From positions 633,501-697,500 of the forward strand of contig WARS01000134.1 of the NCBI GenBank assembly GCA_008933995.1: a stretch of DNA of 64,000 nt. Reading direction: 5' to 3'. Below the pieces are notes generated by a model. That model saw nothing but the letters and a program-made list of their open reading frames with translations. It was not told the DNA's origin and ran no database searches. This document shows positions 2,743 through 37,300 of the stretch, in pieces. Source of the stretch: Datnioides undecimradiatus (lineage: Eukaryota > Chordata > Actinopteri > Lobotiformes > Datnioididae). Each line of letters starts with the position of its first letter. Positions within the stretch are counted from its first letter, which is position 1. The position numbers and the translations under genes were made by a program.

Positions 2743-2775
<33 letters not shown>
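2708..2775. repeat. (CA)n / (CACATA)n microsatellite
   Basis: CA repeat interrupted regularly by TA to give CACACATA units, then a pure CA run. It is complementary to the nearby GT tract. Confidence 0.95.
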
Positions 2776-7236: not shown

Positions 7237-7302
7237 GTGTCTCCCCACCCGTCAACACACCCCTCACCACCAGCTGCGACTCCCCCGGACTGGGCTGCCC
7301 AG
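7237..7302 (+). CDS. adgrg2: adgrg2 mucin-like mini-exon 1
   Basis: A 66-nt exon follows a pyrimidine tract and AG, and ends before GTAGGA. It is phase 1 at both ends. It reads [20 protein letters not shown] then P, rich in Pro, Ser and Thr with two Cys. It is the weakest of the mini-exons because its composition is less Thr/Ser-rich, but phase and splice sites match the others. Confidence 0.5.
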
Positions 7303-10300: not shown

Positions 10301-13300
10301 AGCGTTCGTCAAGGTGAGATCATTCAGGGCAAACTGTTTTTAGTCCCAGATCATTGAACGCCAACGTTTTGCCACGACCGTCAGGTGCCTGAGCATTTCA
10401 CCAAGAAAGCCATGTGGTTGTTAGATGTCGAGACGAAATAAAAAGTTTCATCCACTTTTAGATCAAATTTCAACCATCTAGAGCTGCTGAGATCAACAGG
10501 TGGTGGCCTTGTCTGAACCTCTTGAGTCACGGTTGTGTCGGTTTGATCGCAGTCACAGTCTGAGCCGGGAAACACGCTTGTGGTTGGCGTGTGCATGGCT
10601 CGCTAGTTTTACATTAGCATTCCTGGTCCAGTGGTGAAGTTGTACTATTGCTCCTTTATCTCAGTCTGAGAGCAGATGCATGTGGGCTGTTACTCTGGAT
10701 GGAAACAGGCTGAGTTGGTGTCTTCGTCCTGCACTGGCGTCAGAAAAGGCTCTCTAGTAAAGTAGTTTTGATGAATTTTGGCTGTTAAGGTTCAAATTTT
10801 CGGTCAGAGAAAACGTGAGGGAAACGATTAAAACGCGACCTGCTGCCATTTGTTTCCACGTTACCTCAACCTGATACGTCCACAGCTCCTGCTCTGACGA
10901 TGATCATGCAGCTTCACGACCATTCATCACCCTCTGCATCTTTCTCTCTCTCCCTCTCATCCCGACCCCCTTGTCGCTACCACCAGCCGCTTCCTCTCCC
11001 GCCACTTCATCCACTGACTCCACTAACACCACCCATGCTACTAATGCCAACACCGACGGTAAGAAACCCTCCACCTCCACCTCCTTTTCCATCTGAAGCT
11101 CCTCACGCCTCCTGTCTCATTTCACCTCCTTCTCCACTTCCATCTCTCCTCACTCCTTTTGCTGTTTCTTCCTCTTAATCTCATTTTTCCTCCTTTCATT
11201 GTTTTAAAAAATGCTGATTTATGTTGTTCAGATGTGCTGATGATCTCTGATGGTTCGTTATTTAGCCGAAGAGCTCTTTATGGCCCCCTTCTCTCCTGGG
11301 ATATATACTTCTTACAAGTGATTACTGATAAAACAATTATCTTTAATGGGTTTTTTTGAAGAAGCTTCCCTCATAAAAGTCAAAACCCCCTGAAGTTTTG
11401 CCACGATCGACCTTTTAAAGACCAGTGGAAAAGTTGCTTGGGGCTATTTTTACTTTTTATGCACCTCCTGAAAAGTAAAAAGTCCTCCATTGTTCATTTG
11501 TCCGCCCCATTATTCATCGTGTACCTGGGAGAAGACTCGGCTAATACTGTTCTGATGAATTGGTGCAGATGAACGTGTTCGACTGCAGCGAGTTAGACAC
11601 TAGATAAATATTATCTACTGCTGCATTACGGGATGAGTTCATCAAATCTTTTCATTAGTTAATTAACCTCTCTGTCATTTCTTCTGCCATCTGAGAAGTT
11701 GGATTGTTGAATGGACGTTCCCAGGAATTCATGAAAATCAGCTCTTTGTTCTTTGATGAGGGTAATGTGGATTTATTTCTGAGCAGCCTCACAGAGGAAT
11801 TTTAAATACGCGGCTGTGCTGAAGTTAGAAACACCCTTCACTTCCAGAAGTTGTCAAAGTCGCTGTGTGTTGGGAGCCTCTGGAGCATTTTCCATTTTGT
11901 TCTCCATGTTCAGTCCCTCGTCGTTCTGCTGTATCATTTGATTTGTCATCTCCAGTTCTCCCTCCCATCACTCCATCTCCATCCACCATCCCTACCACTA
12001 GCATGCCACTAACCCCAACCATCAGTACCACAACCACAACCAGCAGCAGCAGCAGCTCATCCTCCTCCTCCTCTGGTAAGGCTTCTGCTTTGCTGCTTTG
12101 TTGTTTGCCACAAGTATCTCCAGACTTTCCATGCAAATTAAGACCATTAAGGTAATTAATGAAGGTTTCCCACCTGAAGGTTGTTGTTTTCAGGCTAGAC
12201 AAGCCTTTCAAACACTGTAAATATGAACTGTAGAGCCCTCGACTGAAACATTAGGCTAAGAAATCATCACTGTTGAGACGCTCGGGAATACCTTGATCTA
12301 ATTTCAGCCACACAAATTATAACCATGACTGATTTATTGTATAAAATATTTTGCTTTCACACATTAAAAAACAGGAAATGTGAAACTGACACATTGACTC
12401 CAAGATGCTTTTGGGAAACTCTGTCGTACCAGATGTCAAAGGCTTACCTTGATCACCATTCCTCCTCAGAATCAAGAAAGACTTTTGAGATTGGTCCTGA
12501 AACCCAACAGGCTTGCAGCTTTTCCCATTAACGCCCTCTGCTTTTGTGTTTTGTGTCACTGACCTGCTGAGTTGTTGTGCTAATCAGTTATGCCCGCCGC
12601 TACCATCGCCATCATCACCAGCGCTGCTACCCCTGCATCCCCTGCCACTAACGTTGCTTCAGCCAGCAGTGCAGCACATGGTAAGGTAGTTAACCAAATC
12701 TAAGCTAACGGCGTCGGTCGAGGCACTGACTTCATCCTGTTCTGTCATTAAAAACATAAAATCAGTCTGTTTTTATTTATTTTCGGTTGCTAATTTTAAT
12801 TTTTCCCAAATATTTTTGCGGCTTTAAGAGCGAGAGAGGTTTAAACAGGTGACCAGCTAATCACTGCCGCGACACAAACAACCACATTCACACCTATGGG
12901 CAGTTTTAGAGCTGTCAATGAGCCAAACCTGCCTGTTTCTGATCCGAAGACATGTGAAAAAAGGGCTGAAACCACCACCTTTTTAGCTAGCTTCAAGCTA
13001 GCTTTAGCTCCACTACATGCTAACAGATGCTAGCAGAAGAAAAGCTAGCTCGCTGTTGTCTCGTCTAAAACCAAATTTAACTGCTGCAGCTGCCCTAAAG
13101 CTTTATTTATTATATATTTCTTTATATTTCTTTGTGTCGCGTTGACATAACCATAATTTCTGACTCAACATCGACTCCAGAGTTTTGGTTGGGGAACTTG
13201 AAAAGCACTGAGATATTCAGTTGTAGCTTAACAACAACAACAACATAAAAACAAATGACGTCACTGTTTTTGTTTCATTTAATTAAATGCGTTAAATATA

Positions 13301-16300
13301 AATAATGCAACGACTGACGACCATTTTGCAAGTCGTTGTTATCCATCATTTTCAGTATATATTATATCACACACAACGCGAACCTGAAGTTATTGAAGGA
13401 ATCGACGTGATTATACTTTTTTTTGGATTAAAATGTTCATGTAATAACATATTTGGCATCAAATGTGAGCGGAAAATCCTTTTTATATGAAGAAAAATGA
13501 ATCAATAGTTGGAGAGGACTGAACTTCCATCTCTGGACGAGTATGCATAACCGCCTTCCCGTCCATCATCACTGACAGCATGTGATTACACCATCATGTG
13601 CAGCATATTGAAGTGCAGCGTATTGAACTGCGAGCCCTTATAGATATGGAGTTCTGCACAGACAGATGGATTATTGAATGACCTGCGAAGCTGCATTTAA
13701 AAAGTGAAATGTCTCCATTGAAGGCGGCAAATTGCAGCTGTTCATGGGGCTTTTTATGTAGGTGAGGAAGGTTACAGCGCGTTTGTGTGCGCGCTGTGTG
13801 TTTGTGCGCATCATGAGGTGAAGGACCTTTTCATTTGAGCTTCTGTAGTAAATGCACTTCCTTGTGTGAGCGAACAGGCGGTGGAAAATAAAAGAAAACA
13901 CGGACGATCGTTGGCACTACCTTGGACTAAACGGCACTTGACACAGGTACATTAGGAAGTGCTCGTCAGTCGGTTTCCATTGATGCGTAATGGGTCGTGT
14001 TTATCTCGTCAGGCGCAATCACGCCTCTCAAACACGTCTTTTCTCGTCAACGACAGCCACTCTCTTTACGCCGCTTTCTGGTCTTTTGAAATGCAAAGCT
14101 GCGAATGTCCTTGTTCCACTGCTGGGAGATCGCTGTTATTTCAGAAATTAAGAGTGTTAAGTGTTTTTAATAAATACTACCTACTTAATTCACTTCTGAC
14201 CGAACAGATTTGCTTCAGCATTTTGTCTCTTGTTTCTCTCTCGGACTTCCTCTTCCTCTTCGAACACAAACTTACTGTCACCAGTGCGCAGGAAGTGATG
14301 GGGTCATGGTGACACTGGTTGTGGAAAACTGGGTGTTCATACTGCCGAACACAACATCCTGCACACAGCACCTTAAAAAAGCATTTTCCAGGTGTAAATA
14401 ACATGTTATAACTAACTAAAAACCGCAATTTAACAGTAAAGATGAAATGTTGTTAATTTAATATTAAGTTATCTCAATTTAATAATTTATGGTTATTAAT
14501 AAAAAAAAATAACAAATGTGAAAAACACACTCATTTTACACATAAATGTCTCATAAATGTGTCATTTTCTAATCTGAGGACCTGAACTGTGATCCCTGCA
14601 TGCCTGATCCAAACGCAGTGCCACAGCTTCACCTGAGCCTGCTGCCGACCGTCACTGCAAACCCATGTATTAAAACTGTTACTCAGATTAATGCCCCCAG
14701 ATGGGAAACAGGTCCCTGCAGTGCTGGTGCGTGTACAGGTTGATGTCCCCACAGTGCAGCTGTGCTTTAATGTATCCTCACAGTGTAGCAACGAACAGGT
14801 TGTTGATGCTAAACTGTAATTCTCATTCATTTACAGGTGTGTTTTGCATCCACCTGCCCACAGACTGGTGTATTCTCTACCTGTAGTGTGTGTTCATCAA
14901 GCTAATTGATCATCTGTGATTGTTTACTTCCCCCTGTAGCCCAACAGACAACCAGCAGCACAACAACTGTTTCACCTGCTACCACTAACAGCCCAGATAC
15001 TAACCCCACAACGCATGGTAAGAGCAACAATACTGGAGTGACGCTGCAGCCGAGACTGACTAGCTTTACATGCCTGATGCTGTGCATGCAGTGTTAATGT
15101 GGGCAGGTATGAAAACACACGTGACCTGAGGCTTTTCACCGTAATGTCGCTGTAACGCAGCGGTGGCAGCGCTCAGTGATGGAAAAAGCAGCTGAACTGA
15201 GGCGAACTGCAATAACTCTGAGTAATAAAACTGGGGCAGTTTAAAACTAAAGGAAATTAAATTAGTTTTACTTTATTTCCCAACATGGTTATTATTATTA
15301 TTATGGGCACAGCTGAGCCTCTGATGGTTGACTACAAACCCCGGGTCATGATGTTAGACCTTAAAAACACTATTATTACTGTTTCTTATGGATTATTACA
15401 CCAGTTATTAGCATTTAAAGCAACTGTTATGCACATTAATTTAGCTCATGAATCACTGGCTGTTACAGCAACAGGTGCATAATCAGATTTTAGTTTGTCA
15501 GCAAATGTTCAAAACTGGTGCTTTTTCATTATTGTTTGCAACATAACAACATGATAATTGTGTTTTATGCCTGAGAAAGACTCATAGCTCCTCACATTTG
15601 AAGTTACAAGTTGGTAAATGGGATTAATTATTTAATTATGTTGATGTTTTTCTTCTTGACAGCAGGGAAATTCTGTCCCAGTGTATTAAAACTGAAAAAA
15701 ATTGCATTTTCTGTAATTTGTTTTGAATAATCCCTTTGTATATTTGTATTTCTTGCATTCTGCTGATATGCAAAACACTTAATTCTCCAATTATTGCTTC
15801 TTAATACTCGTCTTCCCGTCTAACTGTGTCTCTTGGCCTCCTCCTTCCTCTTTTCCCGCTTGTTTCGTCTCCACAAACAGTCCTGAGTGCGATTCCCCCG
15901 CTGCTGTCGGTAACTACTAACCAACCAGCCACTAACTTAGCTGTCACTGCTGCTTCTTCTTGGGGTAAGATTAACCTTTGCCTGCTTTGTCTCGTCTTTC
16001 CTGTTAATTAGTTCTATATTCTTTAATCTTTGTTTTCTAATCAGAAGACTTTTCTTTGGTGTCACGGTTTTAATTATCATTTTTATACAAAGGAGTTTTA
16101 ACTACCTGCTGCTAACACTCCAATTTCACTAACAGACAATAATATTTTATTAAATGAGCCACACTCTGGTTTCAGTAGTCAGTTTATTGTTAAACTGGAT
16201 CGTTGGCATATTGGCATATTATCAGTATCTGCTTATATGTTCGCAGCATGAGCAAACACATAAACTGCCTGTTAAAAACAGTGTTGTGGTGAGGTGTTGG

Positions 16301-19300
16301 CTGCACAGTCCACAGAGAGAAGCGAGATTCATCTCACCTGTGTGTTGACATGTTGACAGCAGCTGCTTCCCCAGTTGTGTTACTAACAATTTAAATCAAA
16401 ATTAAACAACTTAACCTCATCATACAAACACTCTTCTTCTGATTTTGGTTGGTAAATACTTTTTGTTGTAGTCTTCATCCTTTTCTTTGCCGTCTTGTCG
16501 TTTATTCCTGTAACTGTCAGCAAAGAAATTATTTATATAATTGGAAACAGGATAGTTTTCATTTGTCCAGATTTGAAGAAACTTCTTGCTTCAGATATTA
16601 TAATTTCTTACACCTGCATCAGAAACAGCTTCTACACCTCACCTTCTTAATGAAGACTTGGAGCTTTAATTACCCATGGACAGATTATAAGGGGTTCATT
16701 CAGCAGAGAGGCTCTTCGGCTCTCTGCTTGGTTTGTGTTGATCCTGGAAACTGTGATTAAAAACCATGTTTGTGCAGTTTTAACTGAATAAGAGCCTCAC
16801 AGCATTCTGCTGACTGTGCACATTTCGTCTCCACAAACAGTCCAGAGTGCGATTCCCCCACTGCTGTCGGTAACTACTAACCAACCAGCCACTAACTTAG
16901 CTGTCACTGCTACTTCCTGCTGGGGTAAGAATCACACTTGCATGGCAACAAAGGTCGTTCACTGTCATCTTTACGTTCCTGTCTAGTTATTTCATTGTTT
17001 TCAGCTTCTGTGCATGCAGGAGTGTTCAGTTTGCTCTTTTCCAGCTGGGCTGTGTTTCACATTTAATGTTTTCCCACCAGGGAGTTTAGATTTTTGACGC
17101 GGCGTCTTGCTGATTTTTGCATTTTTCCACTTTCCCCGGGTGTGGCTCTTGCATTTGAATCCATGAAACAATCTGATTCTCTCTGGTTTTCTCTCATGTG
17201 GTACAGACATTTCCATAATCCTTCACTGTTCCAGCTTGTTCTCCATTATTCATGCTTTGAGCCTTTCTGCTTTGGGTTTTACTCCTATAAACGACATTTT
17301 CTCTGACAAGGGAAGAGAATCAGTAACAAGATGAAGGTACAGATTCCTGAAACTCTATTTGTTGGTTTCATCTGGGGTGAAGGTTCTTCTCATCTCTCCT
17401 GTTTATTCGACTGATTTGAGGTTTTTTTGTTTATATATCTTTTATTTATTATTTGTAACCTGCTTTTTCACCATAAATGGCGTCTGGTTTGATCTGCCGT
17501 GACCTGCTGACAGCGAAGGTCTCCTCGTCTGCAGCTGCTGTTGTTACTCGTCAGCAGGCTGAACCTCTGGCTGCTGGTCCAGCTGCTCACAACCGAAGAC
17601 TCCGCCATGTTTTTGGATTAACTGCTGCAGGATCCCCCAGAGCTGGTCCTGCTTTGGTTCCCAGAGCTTCCTCTCATAGGTCCCTTGCATCCAGTGAGTC
17701 AAGCCCCCAAACCCAAGCCCCAAGTCTCCCAGATCCAGGATCTGAGAGCAGACTCTTAGTTCCAGCTGCCCCAGTCCCACCTGAGCCCTCTCGCCCTAGA
17801 CCTCCAGCCTTCCTCCCCAGGCACCAAGGCCACCGCGGCTCCAAAACCTCCTTGGGATTCATCTCCACTCCTTTGATCAGGCAGGGGAGGAAGAGGCCAA
17901 CAGGAGGAAGACGTCCAACAGCCACCAGAGCAACAGAAAGACCAGTGGTTCACATCACCAAACCCGCTGCACAACCAACTGATCATAAACACACAGCGAG
18001 GCCGACATACACAACGCAACAAGGTGGATTTAAACACACAATTGCGCACACACATGCACCGGGCTTTAAAAACACAACACACCTGGGAAATGCGACGCAC
18101 AGGAATGGCAGCATCGATGCATCAGCCCAACCTACATCGCAACTGACCTTCTCTCAGAAACCGGTCGCCAACACAGAGACTCCTGCAACCACTCAGGCCT
18201 CAAAACTCCCTCATGAATCAGGACTTTCAAGCTCACCTCAGGGGTCGTCACCATGGCAACGTAGAGACGAGGAATTAGATGCAAAGGAATCCACCTCAGC
18301 GATCGCAGCATCGTCACTGTTGTCTGCGCTTAGCAACAGGAAGAACAAACCTGTAGCGCCGCAGTGGTCGCAGTTAAGCATAGATGATGGGGGAAACCAA
18401 ACAGTTGCCGTGGGTAACGGGACAAATCCTCTGGAACCACTGGGCGACGAGTACACATCAGGGTCGGAGCCATTTGTGTATGAACTGACTGAGCTCGGCT
18501 TGTACGAGCTCGATGTCGCCTACTCTTTGGATGAACCCGCCACTGTGCCGCCAGCCTTAATCGACCCTGACGCCCCAAACCAACAATCACTCAACAGATC
18601 AGATGCTGCCCGTGGTTTTCATCCTGTCACACACCCTCCAACTGCTTATTCTGAGGGAGGAACTGTAGCGCTCGCACAAACATACTTCAGCGACGGTTCA
18701 GAAACCCCGGCAAGCGGCTCAGCAGCAGGCGGCGAGCTTTCTCTGATCCAATCACAAGACAGACCAGTGCCAAAGACGCTCGTCGGCAGGTCTCAGACTC
18801 CTGCACCCACTGGTCCTCAGGCAGCAGCTGGACAAAAGCAAGAGGAAACTTCCCAAATGCAAGCTGTCGCTCATCAGTTAGAAACATCAACACCATCTCT
18901 GCTCATTCCCCACCCACTGCAGCCAACACCTTCTTCACCTGTGGTGCAACCAAGCTCCTCTGCTTTCCTCACCCAACAGATCTTTTCTTCTTCTTCGCTG
19001 CCACAGAGGAAGGAGCCTTCTGTGGGCAGTGGGTATGACACAGACAGGAGCAGACTGATTATGAATTTATATACAAGCGCAGACACGTCTCCAACCACCT
19101 CTCCTTCTCCTGCTTCCTCCAAATCTGACATCCATCACTTCTCCTCATCCATCCTCACTCCACCTGCTTCATCACCTGTCACTTTAAAAGTTCAAACCTC
19201 GCTTCCTCATCGCTCCTCCAACACCTTCACTCCTGTCTGGTCCGCCATCGTCCCTCTTCCACCCTCTGTTGATCCTCAGCAGCCCTCCACCCCACTCCCA

Positions 19301-22300
19301 CCCTCCTCCTCCTCCCAACAGCCTGAACAAAAGCCCTCAGAAGCAGATGGCGTCGCTGATTCAGCTCACGTTCCTGAGTCAGATGGAGTTAGCGGGAACT
19401 TTCAGCCCTCTGTGTTGTCATCTCCGTCCTCAGACCTTCAAAGCAACTTTGTGGTGACAGGAGTTGACACAGCATCCTCGTTGTCACTTCCTCTCCTCTC
19501 TAAAGCCCAAACTGAAGCTCCGCCGCCAGCTGTCGATGGAGCGCCGCTCCCTGAATACCACTTAGTCTCTGCTGAAGAGTCCTCGAGTAACAGATCGGAA
19601 CCTCTCAGCAGTCGATTGCCCTACTCCGTGGATAATCAGCTCCTTGATGTGCAATCAGGTCTGTTTGTCCATTCTGTCGGGATTATTTTAAACTCCTCCT
19701 TTAGTCAAATTCAGCCAACACCCTCAGGATTGTCTGAGGAGTATTTGGCATCCAGCACCATGTTATTCACAGAGGATTTAACCCCTGAAACACAGTTTGA
19801 GTTGCGGCCTTCACCTCATGCAGCCGGTCCACCAGTAAACCAGTTCTTGGCTCATCCGGATCAGGGAGATTTGAGCAACACTTTTATTCAGCCAGACGAG
19901 TCACGTCCAGTGGCCTCTGAACGCACCCCAGCTCTGCTCCAGGCAGATATTGATGAAGCGCAGCGCTTGCAGTCTGCTTTATTGTCTCCCTCTCCTTCAT
20001 CTTCAGACCCTTTACTTTCAACCTTGAGTCCTCTCCTCCATCACCTTGACAACCTGTCACTCGCCGTATCTTCAGAGATGACTCCTGCTGCAATGCCACA
20101 AGTTGCTAAGATCGCAGGATTCATGACGGGGGAGGAAACTGCGGCGTCTTCCTCCTCGACCTCCCCTAATCCTGCAGATGAGCACTCTCTCCTGTTGGCT
20201 CAGATGTCTTCATCTGGGACACGAGACAGACCTACCTCCAGTTTGACCTTTAACAGGGATCCGTGGAGGCTGCAGCAGACAATCTCCCGTTTACACACCG
20301 ACAACAACCCGAACACAAACTCCAGGGGCTCCCAGGCACTCGTTGGCCATGATGAAGCATTTAATCACCCCGTTTCCCCCGTGTCAAATCCTTCTGTCAT
20401 GGCAACAACCCAGAAACCGACACTCCACAGCAGCCCGAGTGTGCAGCTTGGCACCGCAACCCCCCAGCACGCTTCAGGGCTGGATTATAAGCACCAGTCA
20501 GGCTTGACACAAACTAACACTGAACACCCCGGCGGTCTGATCCACACACACAGTTCAGCTCACTTAGGCACTCGGGCGCACGCAAGCCAGGTTTCAGATG
20601 CAAGTGACAGACTAAATGTGAGTGAGAGAGCAGAAAACGCAGAGGTACATGTTGACGTCAGGCTTCAATCGCCCCACTTCATTTCTTCTGCTCTTACTCC
20701 ATCACTGCCGTCACCCTCCATTTTACCTTCTCTTTCTCTCGCAGCAGCCCTCACACCTCCTTCTTCCTCTCCTGCAACCCCTCCCCACATCACCGCCTCC
20801 TCCCTTCCCCACTCATCTTTCATTACTGCTTCTCTCTCTCCTCTGGCAGCAGTGTCTGCAGAAATTGGCGTCTTGTCGCCCGGTTGGCCGACAGCCGGAT
20901 TCCACCGGCCCACAACAACCCAATCCCCTCTGGACGACCATTTACAGTCCTTCCACCCTGTTAGCCAGTTACCAGAGTCAATCCAGCAGTTCATCACAAG
21001 CAGCCAGTCAGTTCCTCTTGACGTAAACCCTCTCGCCTCTGCAGAAGAGTTTCACAACGATGAGGTTCTGACACCTCTAGCAAACAACTCACAAACAGTG
21101 GACGCTTCCAGGTTTGTCAGCGGTCCGGCATCGTCACCTGAAGCCTTAAATAATCTCACTGCAGCAGAGAAACAGTCACAGCTCTTTGCTTTATTTGACC
21201 CAGCGGACGTTGTTCCAAAAATACATACAGCGGACGAACTTTCCTCTGCTGTGGAACTGGCTTCTTCAGCAGAGAACAGCACTGAGGATGTGGACACAGG
21301 CCTAAATCAAAGTCTGAATCCAGACGCTGCCCTGAACACTCAATCATTTCCTGTTGAGGTGCAAACTACCCCTCCCTGCCCCACTTCCAAACCCTTTAAT
21401 AAACCCACATCTGCAGTATCAGCACGACCCACCAGTGCACCGGTTATACCAAACCCCCTGCACACTTCTGACCTTAATATCCCCTCTTCCACGCCACTCT
21501 CCAGGACCCCCACTGGCTCCCCTATCAATGCCCCAGTTCGAGGCTTCATTTCTGCGTTTGAGGGTGACAACCACACTGCAGACGCAGCAGGTTTAAAACA
21601 CATCTCCATGTCAAATGCAACCACTGTTATGATGCTGAAAAACTCAACAACTGCCACAATTCAAATAGAAAACGGACGTATGGAGGCGCCTCAGGGGAAC
21701 GTGGCTGGTGGCGAACCAACGCTGCATCTCGGCGTGAATCCAGGGTCAAATTTAACCATTTCAAAGCCTGCTCTGAACCCGCGTCCAACCGTGTCAAATC
21801 ACAGCAGGAACCAGAGCTCTGGAGGGTTTATACAAGAGGCTGTGAATCCAGGTCAAAGTGACGGCCGAGTGAAAGATGCCCACCGCTCTCAGACACTACC
21901 TGTGGTCGTCAGTGCCCACCAATTTACCACCACAAAGACCTCGTCTCCAACAGCTCCACTCAGAGCAGTCAGTATGTCGGCGAGCAGTGGCGGCAGTAGC
22001 AGCCTCAAAAAGGCCACAGCACGCCCGACACATGGACCCTCAACTGTGGATTTAGCAGCCAGGCCTGCTTTGCCATGCCAATGTAAACAACGCTTTCATT
22101 TTACATGTCTGTGTGGACTGACGTCGGGGAACAGTATGTCATGCAGTAACAAAAAACTGTAGCATGCACTGTAAAAATCATCTTAGTAACTTGTTTTGAG
22201 TCTTAAAGTCTGTTGATTTCTGCAGGTGTGAGCTTAAATCAAGCGTTAACTAAAGAAAACACATTAAACCCAGTGAAACACATGCAGATCGCATCAAAAT

Positions 22301-25300
22301 CTACGTGGCCAAAAGTATGTGGACTGAACTTTGCAGCGTAAAACTATGTTTTTAGCAAATCTTCAAACTTTGCAGTTTGTGTTTGTCTCTTTTCAAACCA
22401 CAAAACTCCACAATGAACCCGTTTCCCTCAGTTCAGCGTCAATAGGATGACAGTTCAAACAGTTTGCTGAACAGCAGCAAATACAATCAGGCGTCCACAG
22501 ACTTTTGGCCACATTCAAAACCAAACAGAGAATCACTGAATCCGGCTGCGACGCCGTTGCATCAGCGACATTTCCAGACTTTAAGACTGAACACATGATT
22601 CTTTCCCCTCTCAGTGTGGTCGGATTAGCGGCGTCGGGCCTGATCAGCGGTTCTTAAAATCAGTAATTCATCTCAGTAATCTTCTTTTTGTTTGTTTGTC
22701 GTTGTCCAAACCTGTAGCGGTAGATTTGAGCAGGTGTCAATCAGGTGGATGGGTGGGATCGCTCAGGTGCTGGAGGTTGTGATTGGCTTGTCGTGATTCT
22801 GCACCTTGAGTCAGACATTAAAGTGGAGTCTGGTTGACCAGTCAGATTGTAGTGTTTAGCCTGTAGCTGAAACAAGCGGACTGTAGTGTTGTTCTTCTTC
22901 TAAATCATCCACTCAGACTTCAGTCTACCTCGTTCTTCTCACTTTATTCTCTGTAAACCTGCAAACCTCTCGCCCTCACTCGTTTACGCCCTTCCTGTTC
23001 TCTTCAGGCCTCGGTTCTTAGAGGGGTCCTGGTCTGCAGCTCTGCAGGGAGAACTTGCAGGGCTGAAGGAGACTCTCAGCCGCTCTGTAGCATTTACTAA
23101 CAATTATAGATGCCGGAGCGACACCTAGTGGCCGACGTGGAGCATAGCAGGAGAGCAGAGAGCAGTCAAAATGGGAGGAAACGGCATTTAAACCAGATAA
23201 ACGGCAGCGCAGTGAGTGTCTGCTGCGGGAGAAACAGGTCAACAACGTTATTTACATTATTTATTGTTAGATGCTGTGACGCTGATGTGAAATAACGACT
23301 TAAAGGTAAAATATGAGTCGCTTGCTATTTAAAATCATGAGAAATTAAATGTTCAAAGGACTAAATTTAGTGGAAAGAGACATTAAACAGGAGGTTGAGG
23401 CACGTTTTCAGGAGACTCTGGTAAAACTTTGTCTCTGCAGTGATTTCCCTCGAGGTTCATCACAACAAAACCAACTTCTTCTGTTTCTTCGTCCGAATCG
23501 AGGGAGTGAGGATTCAGCAGGTCGTTGAACTAACACTCATTTCATTTGGCTTTTTTTTACATTACAGCGACTTTAATTAATCCATTTCTAACTTCACCTT
23601 CAGCTTCAGTTCCACACACGGAGAATAAAGTAAGTTAGTTTAGGTTGAAGAGCTTCCTTCAGTGTTTCCAGTCGTTCAGGTTCATGCAGGTCTTTAGAGA
23701 AATCAACATAAAACTATGTGAACTTATTTAAGAAGTCGCAGACCCACAAAATAACGTTTCTCTAAGTGATGACGCTGAAAAATAACGTTTTCTGATCAGA
23801 ATGAGATGATTTTTACTGTGTCTGTCGTGTTTTTGTGTGATCCCGGTTTCTTGTGTCTGTGTGTGGTGGAGAAGTGAAGTCTGCAGACTCACGGGGACGA
23901 GCTGAAAGTGTAAAATCCCTTTTCCACGGGTTTTAAACTGTGAATGAAACAGTCAGACGCTGAATCGCTGAACTGCCGCCTCCTCCTCCCTCCTCGCTGT
24001 AATGACTCCTCCGCTCCGCTGCCGTTATCAGGCTGCACGTTCCTCCTCATCGTCTCTCACTCTGTAAAATTGGGTTTTTACATAACTCGATTAGCTCCAA
24101 CCGCTCGATTCATCTCCTGCTATGTGGCACAGGCTCCATTATACATGTGAAATAGCCTGAGCCAAATTGAGACTGAAGCATTTCTCCTGTTCCTCTCTCT
24201 CTCTCCACCACCGACTCCGGCTGCAGAGGGGCTCTTCTACCGGATTTCCTTTGTGGTGGATGTCGGTGGCGCGGCGGCGTTGACCCTGGCTGATGTAGAG
24301 CGAGCCGTGGCTCTCTGGGTAAGATGAGTCAGGCTTATTTTCTGTCTTTTCATGGCTTCACTCTGCTAATTCACGTACGCTGACTCTTCGGTGGACCCCA
24401 GAGTCTGCAGCTGGAGCTGCAGCCGGCAGAAGCCTAATTTCCTGTGAAAGGTGCAAAGCTGCACGTGTAAAAGTCGACTGAAGGCCTCAAAAATGAGAAT
24501 TTAAGATCTAAAGGTGTGAAAATGTGTTAAAGTGCACTGCTGAATTACCCCCCGGATGCCCCAGTGGCACAAAGAACCAGTTATTGCCTTCAGGTCACTT
24601 CCTGTTTGGGTGAAACACAGTTTGGGGTTCAGTGTCCTGCCCCATGATGCTTTGGCATGCAGGCCTGAAGAGCTGGAGACTGAACCACCGGTCCAACACT
24701 GATCTGTTTGCAACATCTACGTTTAAACAACAAGACTTGCTTCAGTTTAATGATCTGATCTGAGTTTAATCAGGATGAATCTCCAGTCTCTGGGGCCCCA
24801 GGTGGTCTTCAGGGCGATCAGGTCTTATTTTAGTCCCAGAAGACTTTATAGATTCACTGCAGCCAGTTCAGTTAATTTGAAAGCGGGGGGCAGTCGTTTT
24901 ATTGAAGTATGGAGCCTTTAAATCTTCATATTAAGAGCAATAAAAATAAAAAGGTCTTTGTCTCGAGTCGCAGCTGAATCACAGCGCGAACAGCAGCCAG
25001 AGACCGTTAAACCTGCCCGGCCCCATAACTCAGCGTGATACAACCCAACGCAGCTGCACGGCAAGATCCCTGACCTCTGTGTACAGGAAGATCCACACCG
25101 AGGTTTATCAGACAACATGCTTGCAACGTAAACATCAAAGGCCTGTTTACTGATGCACATCATGAACAGTTTACATCATAAATGTTATTAATGGTTTCTT
25201 AAAAATAAACATTTTCACTTCAGTTGTTTAGACGCTAATAAAAAATGTGAAATCTTAATGAAAGCTGATTAAATGTGGAACAATCTGAGATTGTTGGGTT

Positions 25301-28300
25301 ATTTTCTCCTGATATAACACGTTAAAGAGTTCGGTTCAATAAAGGTCACATCTCATTGGTTCTGTGTCAGAGGTCCGAACGAGCACAAACAGGAAGCTCT
25401 TGTCTCATTGGTTGATTTGTTTTCTTCTTCCAGCTCAATCAGACGTTTCAGAACTGGACCCACGCGGTTTACATCGACTTTGTCAGGTAACGAAACTGCG
25501 TCAGTCCTGCATCAAACATGGCTGCTTCAGATAGTTAGAGTCTGTTGTCGCCTGCAGGAGGCGAGCGGGTCCACAATTCCTGAGTCCTCTGTTCCATATA
25601 TTCAGTGTACTGTTGATGCACATGACTCCTCCTGTTGAGCTCGAGTCAAACCCTCTAACCCTGTGAACAGAAGATCGACCTCCTCAGGACATTCAAAACT
25701 TTGAAGAACATCAGCAGAACGTGAACTCATTGTGAATCAGATTAATCAGGGTTAATGATGTCCCTGCCTCATGTCCGGATTAAAGGTTTTATTCACTGAC
25801 GGATGTTTTAAATGAATCCTCACTGTTTGTCTGTGTCGTTTCTCTGCAGCGTCCAGCCTGGAGAGAACCCGGCCAGGTACAACATTAAACCCTGCGTCCC
25901 TCTCTCAGTTTCTTCTTCTGAATCGTCTGTTGGTTCCTTTTCTTTGAACCTGCTCTGTTCATGTCTCTTGTGTCCAGTTTCACCTGCCAGGCGCTGCTGG
26001 TTTATTTTTACATCACCAATCAGAGTCTGGGGGAAGCTGCGGTGTCCTCCAGGTTGTCCAGCAGCGAAGGACTCCTGGGTCCCGGCCTGCAGATCCGACC
26101 CTCGTCCACCGATGTCTCGCTGATTGGTGAGAAACGTGATCTCGATCCTCGACCTTCAGACGAAACATGAAGCCGACAGACGTTTGGATGTAGCTCATCC
26201 TTAAAAGATCCTGTCATGAACATGAAAATCAACGAAGCAAACAGCTGGTATTAGCATGTAGCATGCAGCCTGGCTGTAGGCTAGTTCATTCATCACCTGT
26301 GAGACGCCGTTTTCCCATGATGCACCTCTTCATGTCTCTCTGTTTGGACAGAAACAGGTTTATGTCTCAGGGTTATTTGTTTTATTTCTTTCTCGGTTTT
26401 TCATGAGTTTTGTTGTTTTGGTCCAAAGTCTCCTCCGTCCAGACTCCTGTCATCCTGGTCGTCACCTTGTTTCTCTTCCTGTCATGTGACCGTGCAGGTC
26501 TATGTTGGTCAGAGTCTCTCGGTTTGTTCAGTTTGTGTTTCGATCATCATTTCAGAAAACTGTCCTGAGGAGAATCAGCTCCACTACCGCTGGCCCGAGA
26601 GCCGACCCACCGTCACTCAGTACCTGCCCTGCTTCCCCAACAAGGACCAGAGCACCTCCAGGACCTGGTAACTTATCACATTTAGAGTCAAACAGACAAT
26701 AAATCGGTTTGGTTTATTCAGGACAAGGTCGAGAACACGTGAAATGCTCACGTCAGTTTGAGCAAAAACTTGTTTGTGGTGTTTCTGCCTCATTTGAACA
26801 GTAAAACTGTCTGTCTGTCTCTGTCTCTCTGTCTGTCTGCCTGTCTCTCTGCCTGTCTGCCTGTCTCTCTGCCTGTCTGTCTGTCTCAGTCTGATCAGCC
26901 CACAGAACTTCTCCTCCTACTGGTCGTCTGCAGACTTGAGTAACTGCACCGACATCGACACCATCCAGGTGTCTGCAGGTACGCTGAGCAGCCAATCAGA
27001 AGCTCTGACTGCTGCAGACTGAGCATGAGTTTGAATTCATCATAATTTGATAAATGAAGACACTTTAACGAGCCTAGTAGCTCAGCTGGTTAGCTCAGCT
27101 GGTTAGCTCGGCTGGTTAGCTCGGCTGGTTAGCTCAGCTGGTTAGCTTCGGCTGGTTAGCTCAGCTGGTTAGCTCAGCTGGTTAGCTCAGCTGGTTAGCA
27201 TCTCCCTGGATGATCTGAGCAGCTCCTCTTCTCTGTGTCTGTGCAGAAAATGCAGCTGAGGTGGCCGTGCAGCTCGCCGTCATCACCAACAACGAGCTGT
27301 CCAATGAGGAGGTGACGGGCCTGACGCGCTGTAACCGACTGTGTCTGACTGTTACTGACCGACTGTGTCACTGACCGACTGTGTCTGACTGTTACTGACC
27401 GACTGTGTCACTGACCGACTGTGTCTGGCTGTTACTGACCGACTGTGTCACTGACCGACTGTGTCTGGCTGTTACTGACTGCTCCTCCTCCTCTGCAGGT
27501 GTCCAAAGTGGTGACGAAGGTGAAGCAGTTGGTGAATGTGGCGAAGATCAACACCACACTGGCCTCCACCGTCGTCACCATCATCTCCAACGTCATGACG
27601 AGCTCAGAGACGGCGCTCGCCGCCACCTCCGAGAAGTACGGCACTCTGAGTTACTCTGCCCTCCTCTGCTGTACTCTGCTGCACTCTGCTGTACTCTGCT
27701 GTACTCTGCTGCACTCTGCTGTACTCTGCTGTACTCTACTCTGCTGTACTCTGCTGTACTCTACTCTGCTGTACTCTGCTGCACTCTGCTGTACTCTGCT
27801 GTACTCTACTCTGCTGCACTCTGCTGTACTCTGCTGTACTCTGCTCTACTCTGCTGTACTCTGCTGCACTCTGCTGTACTCTGCTGTACTCTACTCTGCT
27901 GTACTCTACTCTGCTGTACTCTGCTGTACTGCACTCTGCTGTACTCTGCTGCACTCTGCTGTACTCTGCTGTACTCTACTCTGCTGTACTCTACTCTGCT
28001 GTACTCTGCTGTACTGCACTCTGCTGTACTCTGCTGCACTCTGCTGTACTCTGCTGTACTCTACTCTGCTGTACTCTGCTGTACTCTGCTGTACTGCACT
28101 CTGCTGTACTCTGCTGTACTCTACTCTGCTGTACTCTGCTGTACTCTGCTGCACTCTGCTGCACTCTGCTATACTCTACTCTGCTGTACTCTGCTGTACT
28201 CTGCTGCACTCTGCTGTACTCTGCTGTACTCTGCTGCACTCTGCTGTACTCTGCTGCACTCTGCTGCACTCTGCTTTACTCTGTTGTACTCTGAGTTACT

Positions 28301-31300
28301 CTGAGTTACTCTGCTGTACTCTGCTGCACTCTACTCTGCTGTACTCTGCTTTACTCTGTTGTACTCTGAGTTACTCTGAGTTACTCTGCTGTACTCTGCT
28401 GTACTCTACTTAGCTGCTCCATCTCCTTCTTCCTTTCTGTATTTCTTCTCACTTCTCACTTTTCTTGTTTTTTGAAGTATCTGTATTATTTTCTCTGTAT
28501 TATTGTTTATTGTTGTTGTTTGTTGTTTATTTATTTTCTCTGCGTCTCAAACGTTTCAGTCGTAGCGTTCTCGTCCTGTTCTCGTCCTCAGAGCTCTGAA
28601 GGCCGTGGACGAGCTGGTGCAGAAGATCGAGTTCGAGGGCCCGTCCGTCAGCATCACCTCCAGACACCTGGCGCTGGCCGTCTCCGCCCTCAACACCTCC
28701 GCCTTCAACGGGACGTCCTTCAGCGCCTTCATCGCCCCCAACAGCAGCGACCCACAGGTGCCGCCGGCCACACTTCCTGTTCCCGAGACAGGTGACCTCT
28801 GATCTTTATTCTGACCAATCGTGTCGTCCCTCAGGTCGACTTTGAGTCGGACAGGATCAACCCTCTGGCTCAGGTGACTCTTCCCGCCTCGCTGCTGACC
28901 GCCGTCTCACTGAGCGAAGCCGACCGATCGTCTCTGTCCAGGATCAACTTCATGTTCTTCAGCAGCACAAACCTGTTCCAGGTGAGTCTGCCAGGTGAGA
29001 TCAATACACGCTGAATCAGCGCTATTGATCACCGATGACTGATCATGTGGCGGTTCCTCAGAAAGAGCAGGACGGACGCTCGTTGAACAGCTACGTGGTG
29101 GCGAGCAGCGTGGGAAACCTGTCCATCAGCGACCTGAGGGACCCTGTGGAGATCGAGATCGCTCACCTGTCCGAACAGGTGTGTGTGTGTGCGTCTTGTT
29201 CTATTTTTATTTATTATTTAAATATTTTTTCTCTTTTATTTACTTTTTTCCTTTATTTAAATATTATTTTTATTTTTTATTTTTTTTGTTTTTATTTGTT
29301 GCTTTCGTTTTATCTGATTTTATACCATTGTATAATAATAAAAACGTTAATTAACCTTTAAATAAGATTATTTTGCTGTTGAAATTATTAATGACATAAT
29401 GTTAGAATATATTTCATTTTCAGTTTCAGTGAAATAAAATAATACATATTGTGTCAGCTGATAAGAGAAACACACAATATTTAATTTATAAAACAATAAT
29501 TTTATGTCATAAATTGATTATTTATTAATGATGATAGTGGAAAGTTTCAGCTGTTAATGAAAATTTTCCTTTAATATGATTTTTTCTGAATTAATCATTG
29601 ATTAAACAGGACTTTTTCTGTCTGTGGATCAAAACACATTTTATTTCCTGGGTTTTGCTGATTTCGGTTTCATGTTTTTCACACGTGGAAACACAGTTTA
29701 CAGAAAATTAGTTTTCTTCTTTAACGTTTATCGATGTGATTGACTGAAACTGGTTGTCTGTCCCTGCAGCCCTCTCTGAATCCCGTCTGCATGTTCTGGG
29801 ACTTTAACATGAACAGTAAGTCTGTGAATCTGCCGTCACCTCGCTGCAAATCACCTTTATTAATATTAATTAATTATATATAATTAATTAATTAATTAAT
29901 TAACTATAATTATTATTAATTATATAATTAATTAATTAATTATATTAATTAGTCGTGTCCATCACTTCTTACCTGGTGCGTGTTGGTTCAAGTCGTGCAG
30001 TAACGCCTCTGTGCCACCAGGTGGAGCTGGAGGCTGGAACGCAGACGGTTGCAGAGTCTCTGCAGAATCCACCAGCAACAAAACCACCTGCCTGTGCGAC
30101 CACCTGACGCACTTCGGCATCCTCATGGTGAGACGGCGCCTGCGCCCGCTGCCAGCCGAGCTTCAGCTTCACTACAACAACCGGAAAAACAGAAATAACG
30201 AGAATCACACACGGGGTTAATTACAAATGAGCAGAAAACTGGAAAAATAACGTTTTAATTCCAAAAACAAGTTAAAACAGTGAATGAAACGGGTTTTAAT
30301 GCAGTTTTATGTTGGTGAAACAGCTTCAGTGTCAAAGTTATTTAGGAGCACGTCGTCATTAGAAACGGTTTTACAGGAAGAAACAGACGTTTGTTGTTGG
30401 TGTGTTAGAGGTGTGTGTGTGTGTGTGTGTGTGTGCGCATGCATGTGTGTGCGTGTGTGTGTGCATGCATGTGTGTGCGTGTGTGTGAGCTCTCTGGTTT
30501 GTTTTTCCCTTTGTCTTCAATCGTTTAGCTGCTGTTTCTCTTTTCATCAGCAGCTCTGCAACAAGCGGCTCTTATTCATTGTTATTAATATTTATTATTA
30601 TTTTATTTTATTTACTTTATTTCACTTTTCATGTTGTTTTTAGCGAATGTGTGTTAGTGGTATTTCTCTCACTCATATCACGTCTGATATGAAAGTTCAT
30701 GTGTTTGCCGTGTAATTGCAGTCCTCCCTGTTCCCCAGATGAACAGTAATGAATGATCCTCCCTCTGTGTTCTCCTCCTCTGCAGCGTGCTCCTCTCGTT
30801 CTGACTCTGTCCTTCTCTTTGTCTCCGTCTGTGTGAGCAGGACATCTCTGGAGCTTCACCTCACATTGACGTGCAGAACAACAAGATCCTGACCTTCATC
30901 ACCTACATTGGCTGCGGCATCTCCGCCATCTTCTCTGCCGCCACGCTGCTCACCTACATCGCCTTCGAGTGAGTTGCGTTCTGATGCGTTGGGACGTGTG
31001 AGAATACCGATGATTGGTGATGTGGCTGCGAGTGGATGAAGCGAATGAAACACATCACTTCAGCAGGAACATCGGCAGAAACGTTCAGCAACATTTCAGA
31101 TTCGTTGACCAAAAACCCTGGACTGGATCTGGAGTTAGCTTGTTGCTAACCGCTGCTAGCTGAGGCTGCCTTTAGCTAGTTAGCTAAGTGATTCAAGCTT
31201 CCAGTCCAGGCAGAGTTGGTTAATAGGACTGCTCGCTGCACAGCTAACTGAGCTAACAAGCTAATGGCAGCACTTGCGATGAGCATTGAATTCATCATGC

Positions 31301-34300: not shown

Positions 34301-37300
34301 TGCACAGAGAGGAGGCGGTGACCCCACAGACAGGAAGTGAAGCTGATCACAGAGCTGATCTGGATTCACAGCACAGAATCAAGCAGCGTTACAGTCTCAC
34401 TGAAAGATGGCAGTGATCTAGTATCTAGTGACTGTTCTTGGCGCTGGAGTTAAACAGTCGTTTTCTGGTCTTGGTGCAGCTCTGACGGCTTGCAGCGTGT
34501 TGCAGCAGCTGTTTCCTGCATGAATCTGTCCATCATGACGCTGTAACATTGAGCGATGTGCGGTCGAGACAAATGGCTGAAACGTTATTTTCTTCTCACT
34601 CCTGCCTTTTTATCTCTGTCTCTGGATGAAGACATTGCTCCGTGAGTCAGTCTGATCCTCGGCTTCGGTCCAGGCTGAAATACCTCAGCATCCATCAGCT
34701 GAACTGACTGAAGCTGCGTCTCCACCTCATGGATCAACTCAGCACATGTTGTATAATCTGACTGCAGCTGCAGCTCGGTCACCAGAGTCTGAACAAACTG
34801 TGATACTGGGTTGATCTGTGAACATCTGCACCATGTCCGTCTGTCCTGAGGAAGAAATCTGTGTTTTGGGGGGTTTCCCTGATCTGACCGGGACTCTGAG
34901 GAGCAGGATTCTGGTATCATGTCCTGACTGCGAAGCCTCGTGAGTGAGAGTGTGATTTGTGCTGTCAAGCTGTCAAACTGACCAGACCTGCCTTCAGACG
35001 TTCGCAGTTCCCAGAGGATGAATTATTAGAATAACTTCCCCTGAGACCTTTGCGGTTTGTCGGGCGGGTTGTGATGAAATGTGGTTTGTGTTTAATCTGA
35101 TGTTTTAATGTGTCAGTGCTTTGGTTTATGACCTGATATCAGCAGAACTAATAAACCTTCCCATGAGCCTCAGCTGGACTCGCCGCTGGCTGGCAAATGT
35201 TAGCATGCTAACGAGCTAAACTCAGAAGTTGGACACTTGCTTGACATCTGCAGGCATGTTAGTATCGTCCAACATGCTGTCGTCTCTGTGCTGCAGACTG
35301 GAGTAAGACGGCCACCAACAACACGAAGAAGGTGAGCTCAGACAACCTGGGCAAGTCTCTGTCATCCAGCTCGTTCGGCTCCAGCACGGCTAACTGGACG
35401 TCCAAAGCTAAAGCTACGCTCAACCCGTTCACCAAGAGACACAGCAACACAGGTGAGACACGCAGGTGAATTCCTGCAGCAGGAAATCAGTTTGTTTATT
35501 GCTTTAATCAATCAATGTGTTTATTTGAACTGTTATCAATCAGTGTGAATATTATAATCACGTTTACATGCAGATTCCAGCACTGGGTTTATTTTCAAAT
35601 TTACATTTTCCTCAAATTTTGAATTTTTTTGTTGGTGCATTTGTGGATAAATTTAAAAAATAACCGAGAAAACACAAAGTTTATTTAAATTAACTAAAGG
35701 AGGTGAAGTTAAAAGTGAAAACCTCAAATGTTTATGACAATCATAATAAATAAATAAAGAAGTAAAGATTAATAAAATGAAACCATCCTTTAAATACTTG
35801 TTACTTGTTTCTAGTCATGTATTTTTTAATTTTACAGTAATTAGTTGGAAAAGTAGCTTTTAAAGTCAGTTTCAGTCTTTTATTAACGTACACATAGTGT
35901 TATGTTAGCATTCTCGTTATCGTTATATTCATTATCACTAATTTGACAAGAGTAATTAATACCTCTGACCACCAGAGGGCAGCGGCGACTGTGAGCTGCA
36001 CCTGTAATGTCCTGGTTAGTCTGCAGGGTGTGGTCGAGTCAGATAATGTTGGATATAAACTGAACTTTGCTGTTGTTAATAAAGTTTGTTCAGTTTAAAT
36101 TTATTTTGATAAAAACTCATAAAATTGTATTTTCAGTAACAAACTTACCACAGTAATCTCTGACAGCGTTGATTAGCTTCATCTCCAGATGCTGTAATTA
36201 CAGGAACTCACTGACACTCTGACACAAGTCCAATAATGCTTTGGGAGATGTAAACAGGAAGTATCATGGCGGCGTTTTCATTTGTTTACATTTTTGAAAA
36301 AGCAGTTCAGTTAACAGCTGAATTAGCTGTTAGCTTGATAGCCTGTTAGCCTGTAGCGGTTAGCACCAGTGGCAAAGTGAGTCTGCGTGTAAACATGATT
36401 TACTTCAGTTCAGTTAACAGTTGAATTAGCTGTTAGCCTGATAGCCTGTTATCCTGTAGCGGTTAGCACCAGTGGCAAAGTGAGTCTGCGTGTAAACATG
36501 ATTTACTTCAGGTGTGAAGGATCTGTCATGTCTGCTCACGTGTTCATGTGTGTTCCCCATGTGTTTGGTGTGTAGAAAGCTCTTCCAACCAATAGCAAGA
36601 GCGGAGGACCGATGGAGGTAAACCTAAAGCTGACTGGCTGATTGACTTCCTGCTTCCAGCATCATGTGACTTGCTGTGTTTCCCAACATGTTTATTTTTC
36701 AAAGTTGGTCCAAATTTTCAAATTCAACATAATTTTTTCATTTTAATTGAACAAAAACATCTCGACGACTTTGCTCGCAAACATTTTGGGAAAGCAGCCA
36801 CTGTGTGTTGTGATTGGTCGGTCACTGTGATGTCACACAAGTTCACGCCATCTTCCCAGTCTGACACGCTGAGTGGGGAGGAGGCTCCATCTTCACCCAT
36901 TGACACATGACCAAAAACAACAGCTCCACCCACCCGGAGTGCCCCAGGGTGGGAAACAAGCACGCCCTGACAGCCTGCATCCATGCTAACACCTGCCTCG
37001 TTTAACTGTGACGTGTTTGCATTTTCAATTAGAGCAGAGTAACAACAGGCTAACGCTGTGGGCCACTGCCGGTCACTCATCGTTAGACATTAACAGGAAA
37101 TGTTGGGAAACAGGATCATGGCGTCAAACTCGGCATTAAATTGAGTGGGTCTGCTTCGATCCACCAGCTGCTCCAGACTCAGACCTGCAGACCTCTGAGC
37201 GCTGATCCACGTCGGGACGCCCCTCAGGTTTTTAGGGTTGTTGTTTTCACTTTAATTCAGCAGCCATCAGACACGTTTGCAGCTCTTAAAGGAGCAGAAA

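What the first reader, a model, noticed from the sequence alone, without database searches (positions are those of the whole stretch)
17535..22133. ADGRG2-type receptor with a giant single-exon mucin stalk
The seven-helix domain and tail are clearly ADGRG2. Yet a stop-free exon of about 1,530 codons, rich in Ser/Thr/Pro and nearly free of Cys, lies upstream on the same strand with compatible phase-1 borders. Human ADGRG2 has a far shorter ectodomain, and a very long mucin-like stalk is known for the paralogue ADGRG4. If real, the fish receptor carries a stalk long enough to project well beyond the glycocalyx. This could change how ligand or shear force reaches the GAIN domain.
Basis: partly seen in the sequence, partly recalled or inferred. 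Interest (0 to 1): 0.75.

Follow-up and report, generated by a model that had tools for sequence, protein, structure and literature searches.

The report
Giant stalk exon in fish GPR126
In this fish the gene for the nerve and ear receptor GPR126 (ADGRG6) carries, at the spot where other vertebrates have one tiny optional exon, a row of small frame-neutral exons and one giant exon that could put the receptor's sensing tip on a very long flexible stalk.

Summary
In detail: 17535-22133 is a stop-free, Ser/Thr/Pro-rich stretch of 1,533 codons with splice signals and phase 1 at both borders. The name given to it is wrong: the receptor is ADGRG6 (GPR126), not ADGRG2. Its 7TM is 76.5% identical to human ADGRG6 and 63.2% to ADGRG2, it has a Gpr126-type SEA domain, and CUB and pentraxin exons lie 3-6 kb upstream of the window on the same contig and strand. 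A 33-exon chain from CUB to tail reads open to one final stop. The giant exon sits where the known 23-28-residue cassette exon 6 sits, between the Cys-loop linker exon (7237-7302) and the first SEA exon (24227). Six small phase 1-1 Ser/Thr/Pro-rich exons precede it; two are 84-nt near-duplicates resembling human exon 6. All 128 skip/include combinations keep the frame. In zebrafish, including the 23-residue exon opens the closed ectodomain and raises signalling. The likeliest reading is an extreme version of that switch: a spliced tether of 0 to 1,710 residues between CUB-PTX and SEA-GAIN. No transcript was available and no second fish could be compared.

The parts
7237..7302 (+). PTX-SEA linker exon with the conserved disulfide loop (...[10 protein letters not shown]), phase 1-1, 66 nt; called exon 5 here by position, not by counting
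   Evidence: Scan, sequence. Of 92 open phase 1-1 candidate exons in the window (54 +, 38 -) it is the only one ending in Cx4-7C within the last three residues. Zebrafish linker ends C369-ASGLG-C375-P376 (PMC6954182 passages). PTX exon upstream ends in phase 1. It is also open in another phase.
10987..11058 (+). cassette mini-exon a, 72 nt, phase 1-1 (also open in phase 0)
   Evidence: donor score 8.6
11956..12075 (+). cassette mini-exon b, 120 nt, phase 1-1, Ser/Thr/Pro 85%
   Evidence: donor score 9.3; further acceptors for the same donor listed
12588..12680 (+). cassette mini-exon c, 93 nt, phase 1-1 (weak acceptor)
   Evidence: donor 9.2, acceptor -2.8
14940..15017 (+). cassette mini-exon d, 78 nt, phase 1-1
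   Evidence: donor 8.8
15881..15964 (+). cassette mini-exon e, 84 nt, phase 1-1, resembles human exon 6
   Evidence: 1 of 2000 shuffles reaches its score to human exon 6
16841..16924 (+). cassette mini-exon f, 84 nt, near-copy of e (122-nt block 91% identical)
   Evidence: 2 of 2000
17535..22133 (+). giant stalk exon, 4,599 nt, 1,533 codons, phase 1-1; exact borders uncertain
24227..24318 (+). first SEA exon (exon 7 by homology), phase 1 in, 0 out, 92 nt
   Evidence: human exon 7 is 86 bp (PMC6388357)
25434..26126 (+). three further SEA-domain exons (25434-25486, 25850-25876, 25978-26126)
   Evidence: Pfam SEA_Gpr126 74 bits, cut-off 29; exons
26556..27311 (+). HormR and start of GAIN exons (26556-26667, 26890-26978, 27247-27311)
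   Evidence: Match to zebrafish Gpr126 6v55
27499..30127 (+). GAIN domain and GPS (CDHLTHFG) exons
   Evidence: Pfam GPS 62.2 bits
30841..33340 (+). seven-helix domain, six exons
   Evidence: Pfam 7tm_2 176.8 bits; 76.5% identity to human ADGRG6
35297..36595 (+). cytoplasmic tail exons (35297-35452, 36576-36595 with stop)
   Evidence: the last exon is short and its acceptor scores -2.9

Best explanation
This is the adgrg6 (GPR126) gene of a fish (no second copy seen). The optional exon-6 position between the pentraxin and SEA domains has grown into seven phase 1-1 cassettes: six small ones and one of 1,533 codons. Shown from sequence: gene identity, order, strand, frame, and that every combination of cassettes is open. 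Inferred: when the giant exon is spliced in, a disordered, O-glycosylated stalk separates CUB-PTX from SEA-HormR-GAIN-7TM. It breaks the closed CUB-HormR contact, as the 23-residue exon 6 does in zebrafish, and lengthens the tether through which matrix-bound CUB-PTX pulls on the GAIN domain and its Stachel peptide. When the cassettes are skipped, the ordinary closed short receptor is made. The fully stretched giant segment would be at most about 380 nm (1,533 x 2.5 A), an upper limit.
For: Identity: Pfam SEA_Gpr126, GPS and 7tm_2. Human ADGRG6 is the best PDB match from GAIN to 7TM (729.7 bits; ADGRG2 579; the ADGRG4 chain covers only the 7TM part, 378) and for the 7TM (526.1). CUB and PTX exons lie upstream on the same contig and strand; the other CUB-PTX matches listed in the genome are at most 44% identical. 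Chain of 33 exons, 2,830 residues and one terminal stop. Position: PTX exon leaves in phase 1, the Cys-loop exon is 1-1, the first SEA exon enters in phase 1. Human exon 6 is 84 bp and exon 7 is 86 bp (PMC6388357). Array: 6 of 6 GTAAG donors in 10001-17500 close an open phase 1-1 exon with at least 33% Ser/Thr/Pro, against 0 of 23 in the regions counted as controls (3 in 1-10000 +, 8 in 36600-64000 +, 12 on the whole minus strand; 17501-36600 + was not counted); Markov mean 0.075, maximum 1 in 200. All 128 combinations open. Mechanism by analogy: exon 6 inclusion gives open ectodomain forms and more signalling in Gpr126 (PMC6954182).
Against: No transcript evidence. Border scores of the giant exon are modest (acceptor 1.0, donor 4.0), though several other exons of the model score alike. 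GC3 is near the intron level and codon usage is uninformative. The last ~20 residues ([20 protein letters not shown]) do not look like a stalk. The Ser/Thr/Pro threshold of the mini-exon scan was loosened after a first scan at 0.42 found three donors. A scan with weighted donors at 0.42 found 4 phase-1 exons on the + strand and 1 on the minus strand, and also 2 (phase 0) and 1 (phase 2) on the + strand, 1 and 1 on the minus. My model has 21 exons from the first SEA exon on and CUB-PTX in four exons; the 26 exons given for human and zebrafish would leave 20 from exon 7 on, and this was not resolved. No other fish could be compared. Signal-peptide exon not modelled.
Confidence: 0.82

Rival explanations
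1. Only part of the giant frame is exonic: for example 17535-17693 (159 nt, phase 1-1, donor TCCA|GTGAGT) is a seventh small cassette, or internal introns are removed, so the real stalk is much shorter.
For: Internal donors at 17693 (score 7.1, phase 1) and 20617 (8.9) are stronger than the end donor 22133 (4.0). The first 60 residues differ in character from the rest.
Against: A stop-free run of 1,533 codons would then be unexplained (longest of 500 Markov copies 428).
Confidence: 0.12
2. The frame is a separate nested gene or a relic inside the intron, not part of the receptor.
For: An in-frame ATG at 17477 and ATTAAA/AATAAA signals downstream exist.
Against: No signal peptide at the predicted start (by eye), no Pfam domain at E 1, borders in the phase the gene needs, same strand, sister exons of the same kind and phase in the same interval.
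Confidence: 0.05
3. It is a fish ADGRG2 with a giant stalk.
For: ADGRG2 is a close relative (7TM 63.2% identical), and a different, ADGRG2-like locus of this genome does have a 991-codon Ser/Thr/Asn-rich frame.
Against: Searches give ADGRG6; ADGRG2-like loci are on C493 and C389.
Confidence: 0.01
4. It is ADGRG4, whose long mucin-like stalk is known.
For: Same order PTX - long stalk - SEA - HRM - GAIN in human ADGRG4 (PMC10687090 passages).
Against: 7TM scores 380.6 bits to ADGRG4 against 526.1 to ADGRG6; a CUB domain is present; two other loci have PTX-like matches and may be ADGRG4.
Confidence: 0.01

Closest known systems
Zebrafish and human ADGRG6/GPR126 with cassette exon 6 (S1/+ss and S2/-ss isoforms; PMC6954182, PMC11475505, PMC6388357, passages)
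   Same: Domain order, phase and 3' border of the first SEA exon (human letters recalled), Cys-loop linker, Ser/Thr-rich symmetric cassette at the same place, length 84 nt in exons e and f as in human.
   Different: One exon of 23 (zebrafish) or 28 (human) residues there; here six small exons and one of 4,599 nt.
Human ADGRG4/GPR112 mucin-like stalk (PMC10687090, passages)
   Same: Very long Ser/Thr-rich segment between PTX and SEA/HRM; proposed force sensor.
   Different: Different gene; no CUB (recall); similarity of stalk sequence was not tested; the paper does not use the word exon, so its splicing is not known to me.
ADGRG2-like locus C389 of the same genome
   Same: 991-codon stop-free Ser/Thr/Asn-rich frame upstream of the GAIN exons, with a GTATGT donor-like site near its end.
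   Different: Repetitive (NYT/YNVTT units) and no significant alignment with the adgrg6 stalk (best E 3).
Membrane mucins with SEA domains (MUC1, MUC16; named in PMC10687090)
   Same: Ser/Thr/Pro-rich region followed by SEA.
   Different: No tandem repeats here and lower Ser/Thr/Pro content (recall for mucins); seven-helix receptor.

Membership tests
ADGRG6/GPR126 | CUB domain at N-terminus | tested here: met
   tblastn of zebrafish Gpr126: exon C160:627513-627847, 72% identity, E 6e-52; outside the window
ADGRG6/GPR126 | Pentraxin domain after CUB | tested here: met
   Three exons in C160:629410-630450
ADGRG6/GPR126 | Linker with conserved Cys pair directly before the splice site | tested here: met
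   7237-7302, [10 protein letters not shown]; six residues between the Cys, five in zebrafish
ADGRG6/GPR126 | Gpr126-type SEA domain, HormR, GAIN with GPS | tested here: met
   59.2% identity (247 of 417 aligned) to zebrafish over SEA-GAIN
ADGRG6/GPR126 | 7TM closest to ADGRG6 | tested here: met
   228 of 298 identical to human ADGRG6, 187 of 296 to ADGRG2; bits 526.1 against 418.8-477.1 (four ADGRG2 chains; the best also covers the tail) and 380.6 (ADGRG4)
ADGRG6/GPR126 | Symmetric Ser/Thr-rich cassette exon 6 between linker and SEA | tested here: met
   Seven phase 1-1 cassettes; e and f resemble human exon 6, reached by 1 and 2 of 2000 shuffles (human letters from memory)
ADGRG6/GPR126 | Alternative splicing of that cassette | not testable with these tools
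   No RNA data
ADGRG6/GPR126 | Same number of exons (26 in human and zebrafish) | tested here: inconclusive
   21 exons from the first SEA exon on in my model where 26 in all would leave 20; not resolved
ADGRG6/GPR126 | Furin site in SEA (many mammals and birds) | tested here: not met
   No R/K-X-K-R in the SEA exons by reading the model; also not conserved in zebrafish, so not defining for fish
ADGRG2 | 7TM closer to ADGRG2 than to ADGRG6 | tested here: not met
ADGRG4 | 7TM closest to ADGRG4; PTX without CUB (the latter from recall) | tested here: not met
Mucin (PTS tandem-repeat) domain | Tandemly repeated Ser/Thr/Pro-rich units | tested here: not met
   No direct repeats of 40 nt or more and no TRF arrays inside 17535-22133; Ser+Thr+Pro 25-52% per block
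Mucin (PTS tandem-repeat) domain | Dense O-glycosylation | not testable with these tools
   364 Ser/Thr in 1,532 residues; glycosylation itself unknown

The most novel reading that the evidence does not exclude
The exon-6 switch of GPR126 has become a programmable tether: seven frame-neutral cassettes, alone or together, set the distance between the matrix-binding CUB-PTX tip and the force-sensing GAIN domain anywhere from 0 to 1,710 added residues, so that one gene makes closed, open and glycocalyx-spanning versions of the same mechanosensor in different tissues.
Probability: 0.35. Interest if true: 0.8.

Novelty: new variant of a known kind. Interest (0 to 1): 0.62.

Why it matters
GPR126 regulates Schwann-cell myelination and ear-canal formation and is studied as a mechanosensor. 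How far its linker length sets its signalling rests so far on one 23-28-residue exon. A natural fish version with the same cassette enlarged more than fiftyfold, and a graded set of small cassettes beside it, is a ready-made length series for testing tethered-agonist and force models. It also suggests that a long pre-SEA stalk can arise in ADGRG6 and not only in ADGRG4 or ADGRG2.

Tried and rejected
Pfam scans of raw frames with stops as X found only two sub-threshold SEA pieces in 24000-33992 +, nothing in 1-17562 +, 37001-46992 +, 990-10981 - and 36600-46591 -, and one sub-threshold transposase hit in 46500-56491 -. The rest of the window was not scanned this way. Intron-split domains are missed by this method; tblastn and the spliced model were used instead.

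ADGRG4 was my own first guess and was dropped. Codon-usage correlation failed as a coding test: shifted frames scored higher. Relatives of one 7TM exon were sought in viral contigs and genome contigs and none confirmed, so conservation in other fish is untested. No neighbour gene was identified in the parts scanned (I recalled VTA1 and HIVEP2 as human neighbours), so synteny is untested. The species was not determined; 'fish' rests on similarity to zebrafish. Paper searches for a long fish GPR126 linker or stalk (CC-licensed PMC papers only) showed none in their listings; one search was ineffective (15 of 7,012 papers listed, none with GPR126). Predicted annotations in sequence databases could not be searched, so such isoforms may already be annotated there. 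Structure prediction was not run, since the spliced protein is not contiguous in the DNA. Papers were seen as passages (PMC6954182, also one section; PMC10687090, PMC11475505, PMC6388357, PMC12886893, PMC13197933, PMC9259995, PMC8584163); others as listings only.
Full report
1. The observation. The + strand has one open frame of 1,561 codons, 17477-22162. Between AG|17535 and 22133|GT it is 4,599 nt, 1,533 codons, phase 1 at both ends. The other five frames of the same stretch hold 49, 73, 60, 86 and 46 stops, and 500 first-order Markov copies never exceed 428 open codons. It is Ser/Thr/Pro-rich (15.1, 8.7, 11.3%) with five Cys, four of them in the last 20 residues. No direct repeats of 40 nt or more, no TRF arrays and no Pfam match at E 1 were found in it. 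Its ends are not unique: other in-phase acceptors (17583, 17739, 17808, 17829) and donors (21563, 21851, 21857) exist, and the donor at 22082 would create a stop at the junction with 24227. Against it, third positions are close to intron GC and codon usage does not single out the frame.

2. The receptor. From 24227 a chain of 21 exons to a stop at 36595, every intron GT..AG, reads open. It has a SEA_Gpr126 domain (74.0 bits, cut-off 29), GPS and 7tm_2. In the PDB the best match is human ADGRG6 (729.7 bits, residues 175-727 of the query). Zebrafish Gpr126 6v55 matches from SEA to GAIN (507 bits), ADGRG2 gives 579 (residues 195-724), and the ADGRG4 chain, which covers only the 7TM part, gives 378. 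For the 7TM and tail alone: ADGRG6 526.1, four ADGRG2 chains 418.8-477.1 (the best also covers the tail), ADGRG4 380.6. Identity is 228 of 298 to human ADGRG6 and 187 of 296 to human ADGRG2.

3. The rest of the gene. The window has no CUB or PTX exon by Pfam on the + strand of 1-17562 or by tblastn on the whole window (weak hits only, best E 0.006 with stops inside). As a control, the same kind of search with zebrafish SEA-GAIN found 11 pieces over the SEA, HormR and GAIN exons but missed the first SEA exon and the 27-nt exon; the recalled human SEA-HormR found only two pieces. The window lies in a 581-Mb genome at C160:633501-697500. In the 40 kb before it, zebrafish CUB-PTX matches C160:627513-630450 on the same strand. 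Joined with the window exons this gives 33 exons, 2,830 residues and one terminal stop; the signal-peptide exon was not modelled. Apart from these four exons, the 30 other CUB-PTX matches listed in the genome are at most 44% identical, so no second copy was seen. The four closest other 7TM loci are 56-63% identical over their best exon. C493:5.245M and C389:9.611M are closer to human ADGRG2 than to ADGRG6 (summed bits 391.6 against 332.8, and 365.4 against 304.4). C482:3.338M (337.7 against 329.4) and C493:1.006M (263.5 against 271.9) are not clearly either and have PTX-like matches (E 2e-5 and 0.029), so I take them as ADGRG4-like; no ADGRG4 query was used. Two or more copies each of ADGRG2 and ADGRG4 are reported for zebrafish (PMC8584163, passages).

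4. The place of the giant exon. The last PTX exon ends in phase 1. The first SEA exon (24227-24318) begins in phase 1 and ends after the Trp before LNQTFQNW. Human exon 7 is 86 bp and exon 6 is 84 bp (PMC6388357, passages); on the human letters I recalled, that puts the same borders at exon 7. A 66-nt phase 1-1 exon at 7237-7302 encodes [21 protein letters not shown]. In zebrafish the linker is C355-P376 with the loop C369-ASGLG-C375, conserved in all but four of 94 species, and the cassette splice site lies directly between that loop and SEA (PMC6954182, passages and one section). Of 92 open phase 1-1 candidate exons in the window this is the only one ending with such a Cys pair. So what lies between 7302 and 24227 occupies the position of exon 6. 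The exon numbers used here are by position; the count does not fit exactly (21 exons from the first SEA exon on, where 26 in all would leave 20).

5. The array. A first scan (Ser/Thr/Pro at least 42%) found three donors upstream of the giant exon and, in the 12 control stretches, one case, on the minus strand. A looser scan (at least 33%, donor GTAAG) found six: 10987-11058, 11956-12075, 12588-12680, 14940-15017, 15881-15964 and 16841-16924. All 6 of 6 GTAAG donors in 10001-17500 close such an exon. In the control regions 0 of 23 do (1-10000 +, 36600-64000 +, whole minus strand; 17501-36600 + was not counted), and the Markov mean is 0.075 with maximum 1 in 200. The threshold was changed between the two scans. 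A third scan with weighted donors at 42% gave four phase-1 exons on the + strand (7237, a, b, d) and one on the minus, but also a few in phases 0 and 2 (2 and 1 on +, 1 and 1 on minus); 7237-7302 and exon a are open in more than one phase. Exons e and f are 84 nt, lie in a 122-nt block 91% identical with sharp edges, and differ by three replacement and two silent codons. They score against human exon 6 higher than 1,999 and 1,998 of 2,000 shuffles; exons a, b, c and d were reached by 649, 179, 1,003 and 77. e and f are copies, so this is one piece of evidence, and the human letters were from memory (a primer printed in PMC6388357, reads TPPTVT on my translation). All 128 combinations of the seven cassettes between the linker exon and the first SEA exon are open. 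The small ones add 177 residues.

6. How it most likely works. Known: in zebrafish Gpr126 the isoform without exon 6 is closed by a CUB-HormR contact, bridged by the Cys loop. Adding 23 residues gives open forms and more signalling. The zebrafish heart mostly skips this exon (PMC12886893, passages). GPR126 responds to pushing with collagen IV and pulling with laminin-211 (PMC9259995, passages). For ADGRG4 a mucin-like stalk between PTX and HRM is proposed to sense shear, with a pitch of 2.5 A per residue taken from mucins (PMC10687090, passages). Inferred: inclusion of the giant exon abolishes the closed form and sets CUB-PTX on a stalk of up to about 0.38 um. This is an upper limit, because only 364 of 1,532 residues are Ser or Thr. 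Skipping restores the ordinary receptor. A longer, softer tether should raise basal openness and require larger displacement before force reaches GAIN.

7. Novelty. Cassette exon 6 and long aGPCR stalks are each known. Their combination in ADGRG6, with a 4.6-kb exon and six sister cassettes, did not appear in the listings of my paper searches (one search was ineffective). Database annotations could not be checked. I rate it a new variant of a known kind.

Noticed in passing
L033+L032 (G000:C389:9592500-9612499), positions 12217-15189 of the joined 20 kb: An ADGRG2-like locus of the same genome has its own 991-codon stop-free, Ser/Thr/Asn-rich, repetitive frame upstream of the GAIN exons, with a GTATGT donor-like site near its end.
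   Followed up: partly
L026+L027 (G000:C493:5244500-5264499, minus), positions 10782-11987 of the reversed 20 kb: A second ADGRG2-like locus has a 402-codon frame, 56% Ser/Thr/Pro, with TTSESLNTTTAT-like repeated units.
   Followed up: partly
L028/L029 and L030/L031: The two ADGRG4-like loci show PTX-like matches but no stop-free stalk frame of 200 codons or more in the fetched 20 kb each (only a PTX-like frame in one and runs of N in the other), although human ADGRG4 is the paralogue known for its stalk.
   Followed up: no
15863-15984 and 16823-16944: 122-nt duplicate with abrupt edges that contains just mini-exon, acceptor and donor; flanks show no similarity.
   Followed up: partly
27652-28407: Minisatellite of about 80 copies of TACTCTGCTG in an adgrg6 intron right after a GAIN exon.
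   Followed up: no
53298-53492, minus strand: Sub-threshold DDE transposase match (20.5 bits, cut-off 28.1).
   Followed up: no
36303-36511: 103-bp unit duplicated at 97% just before the last exon.
   Followed up: no
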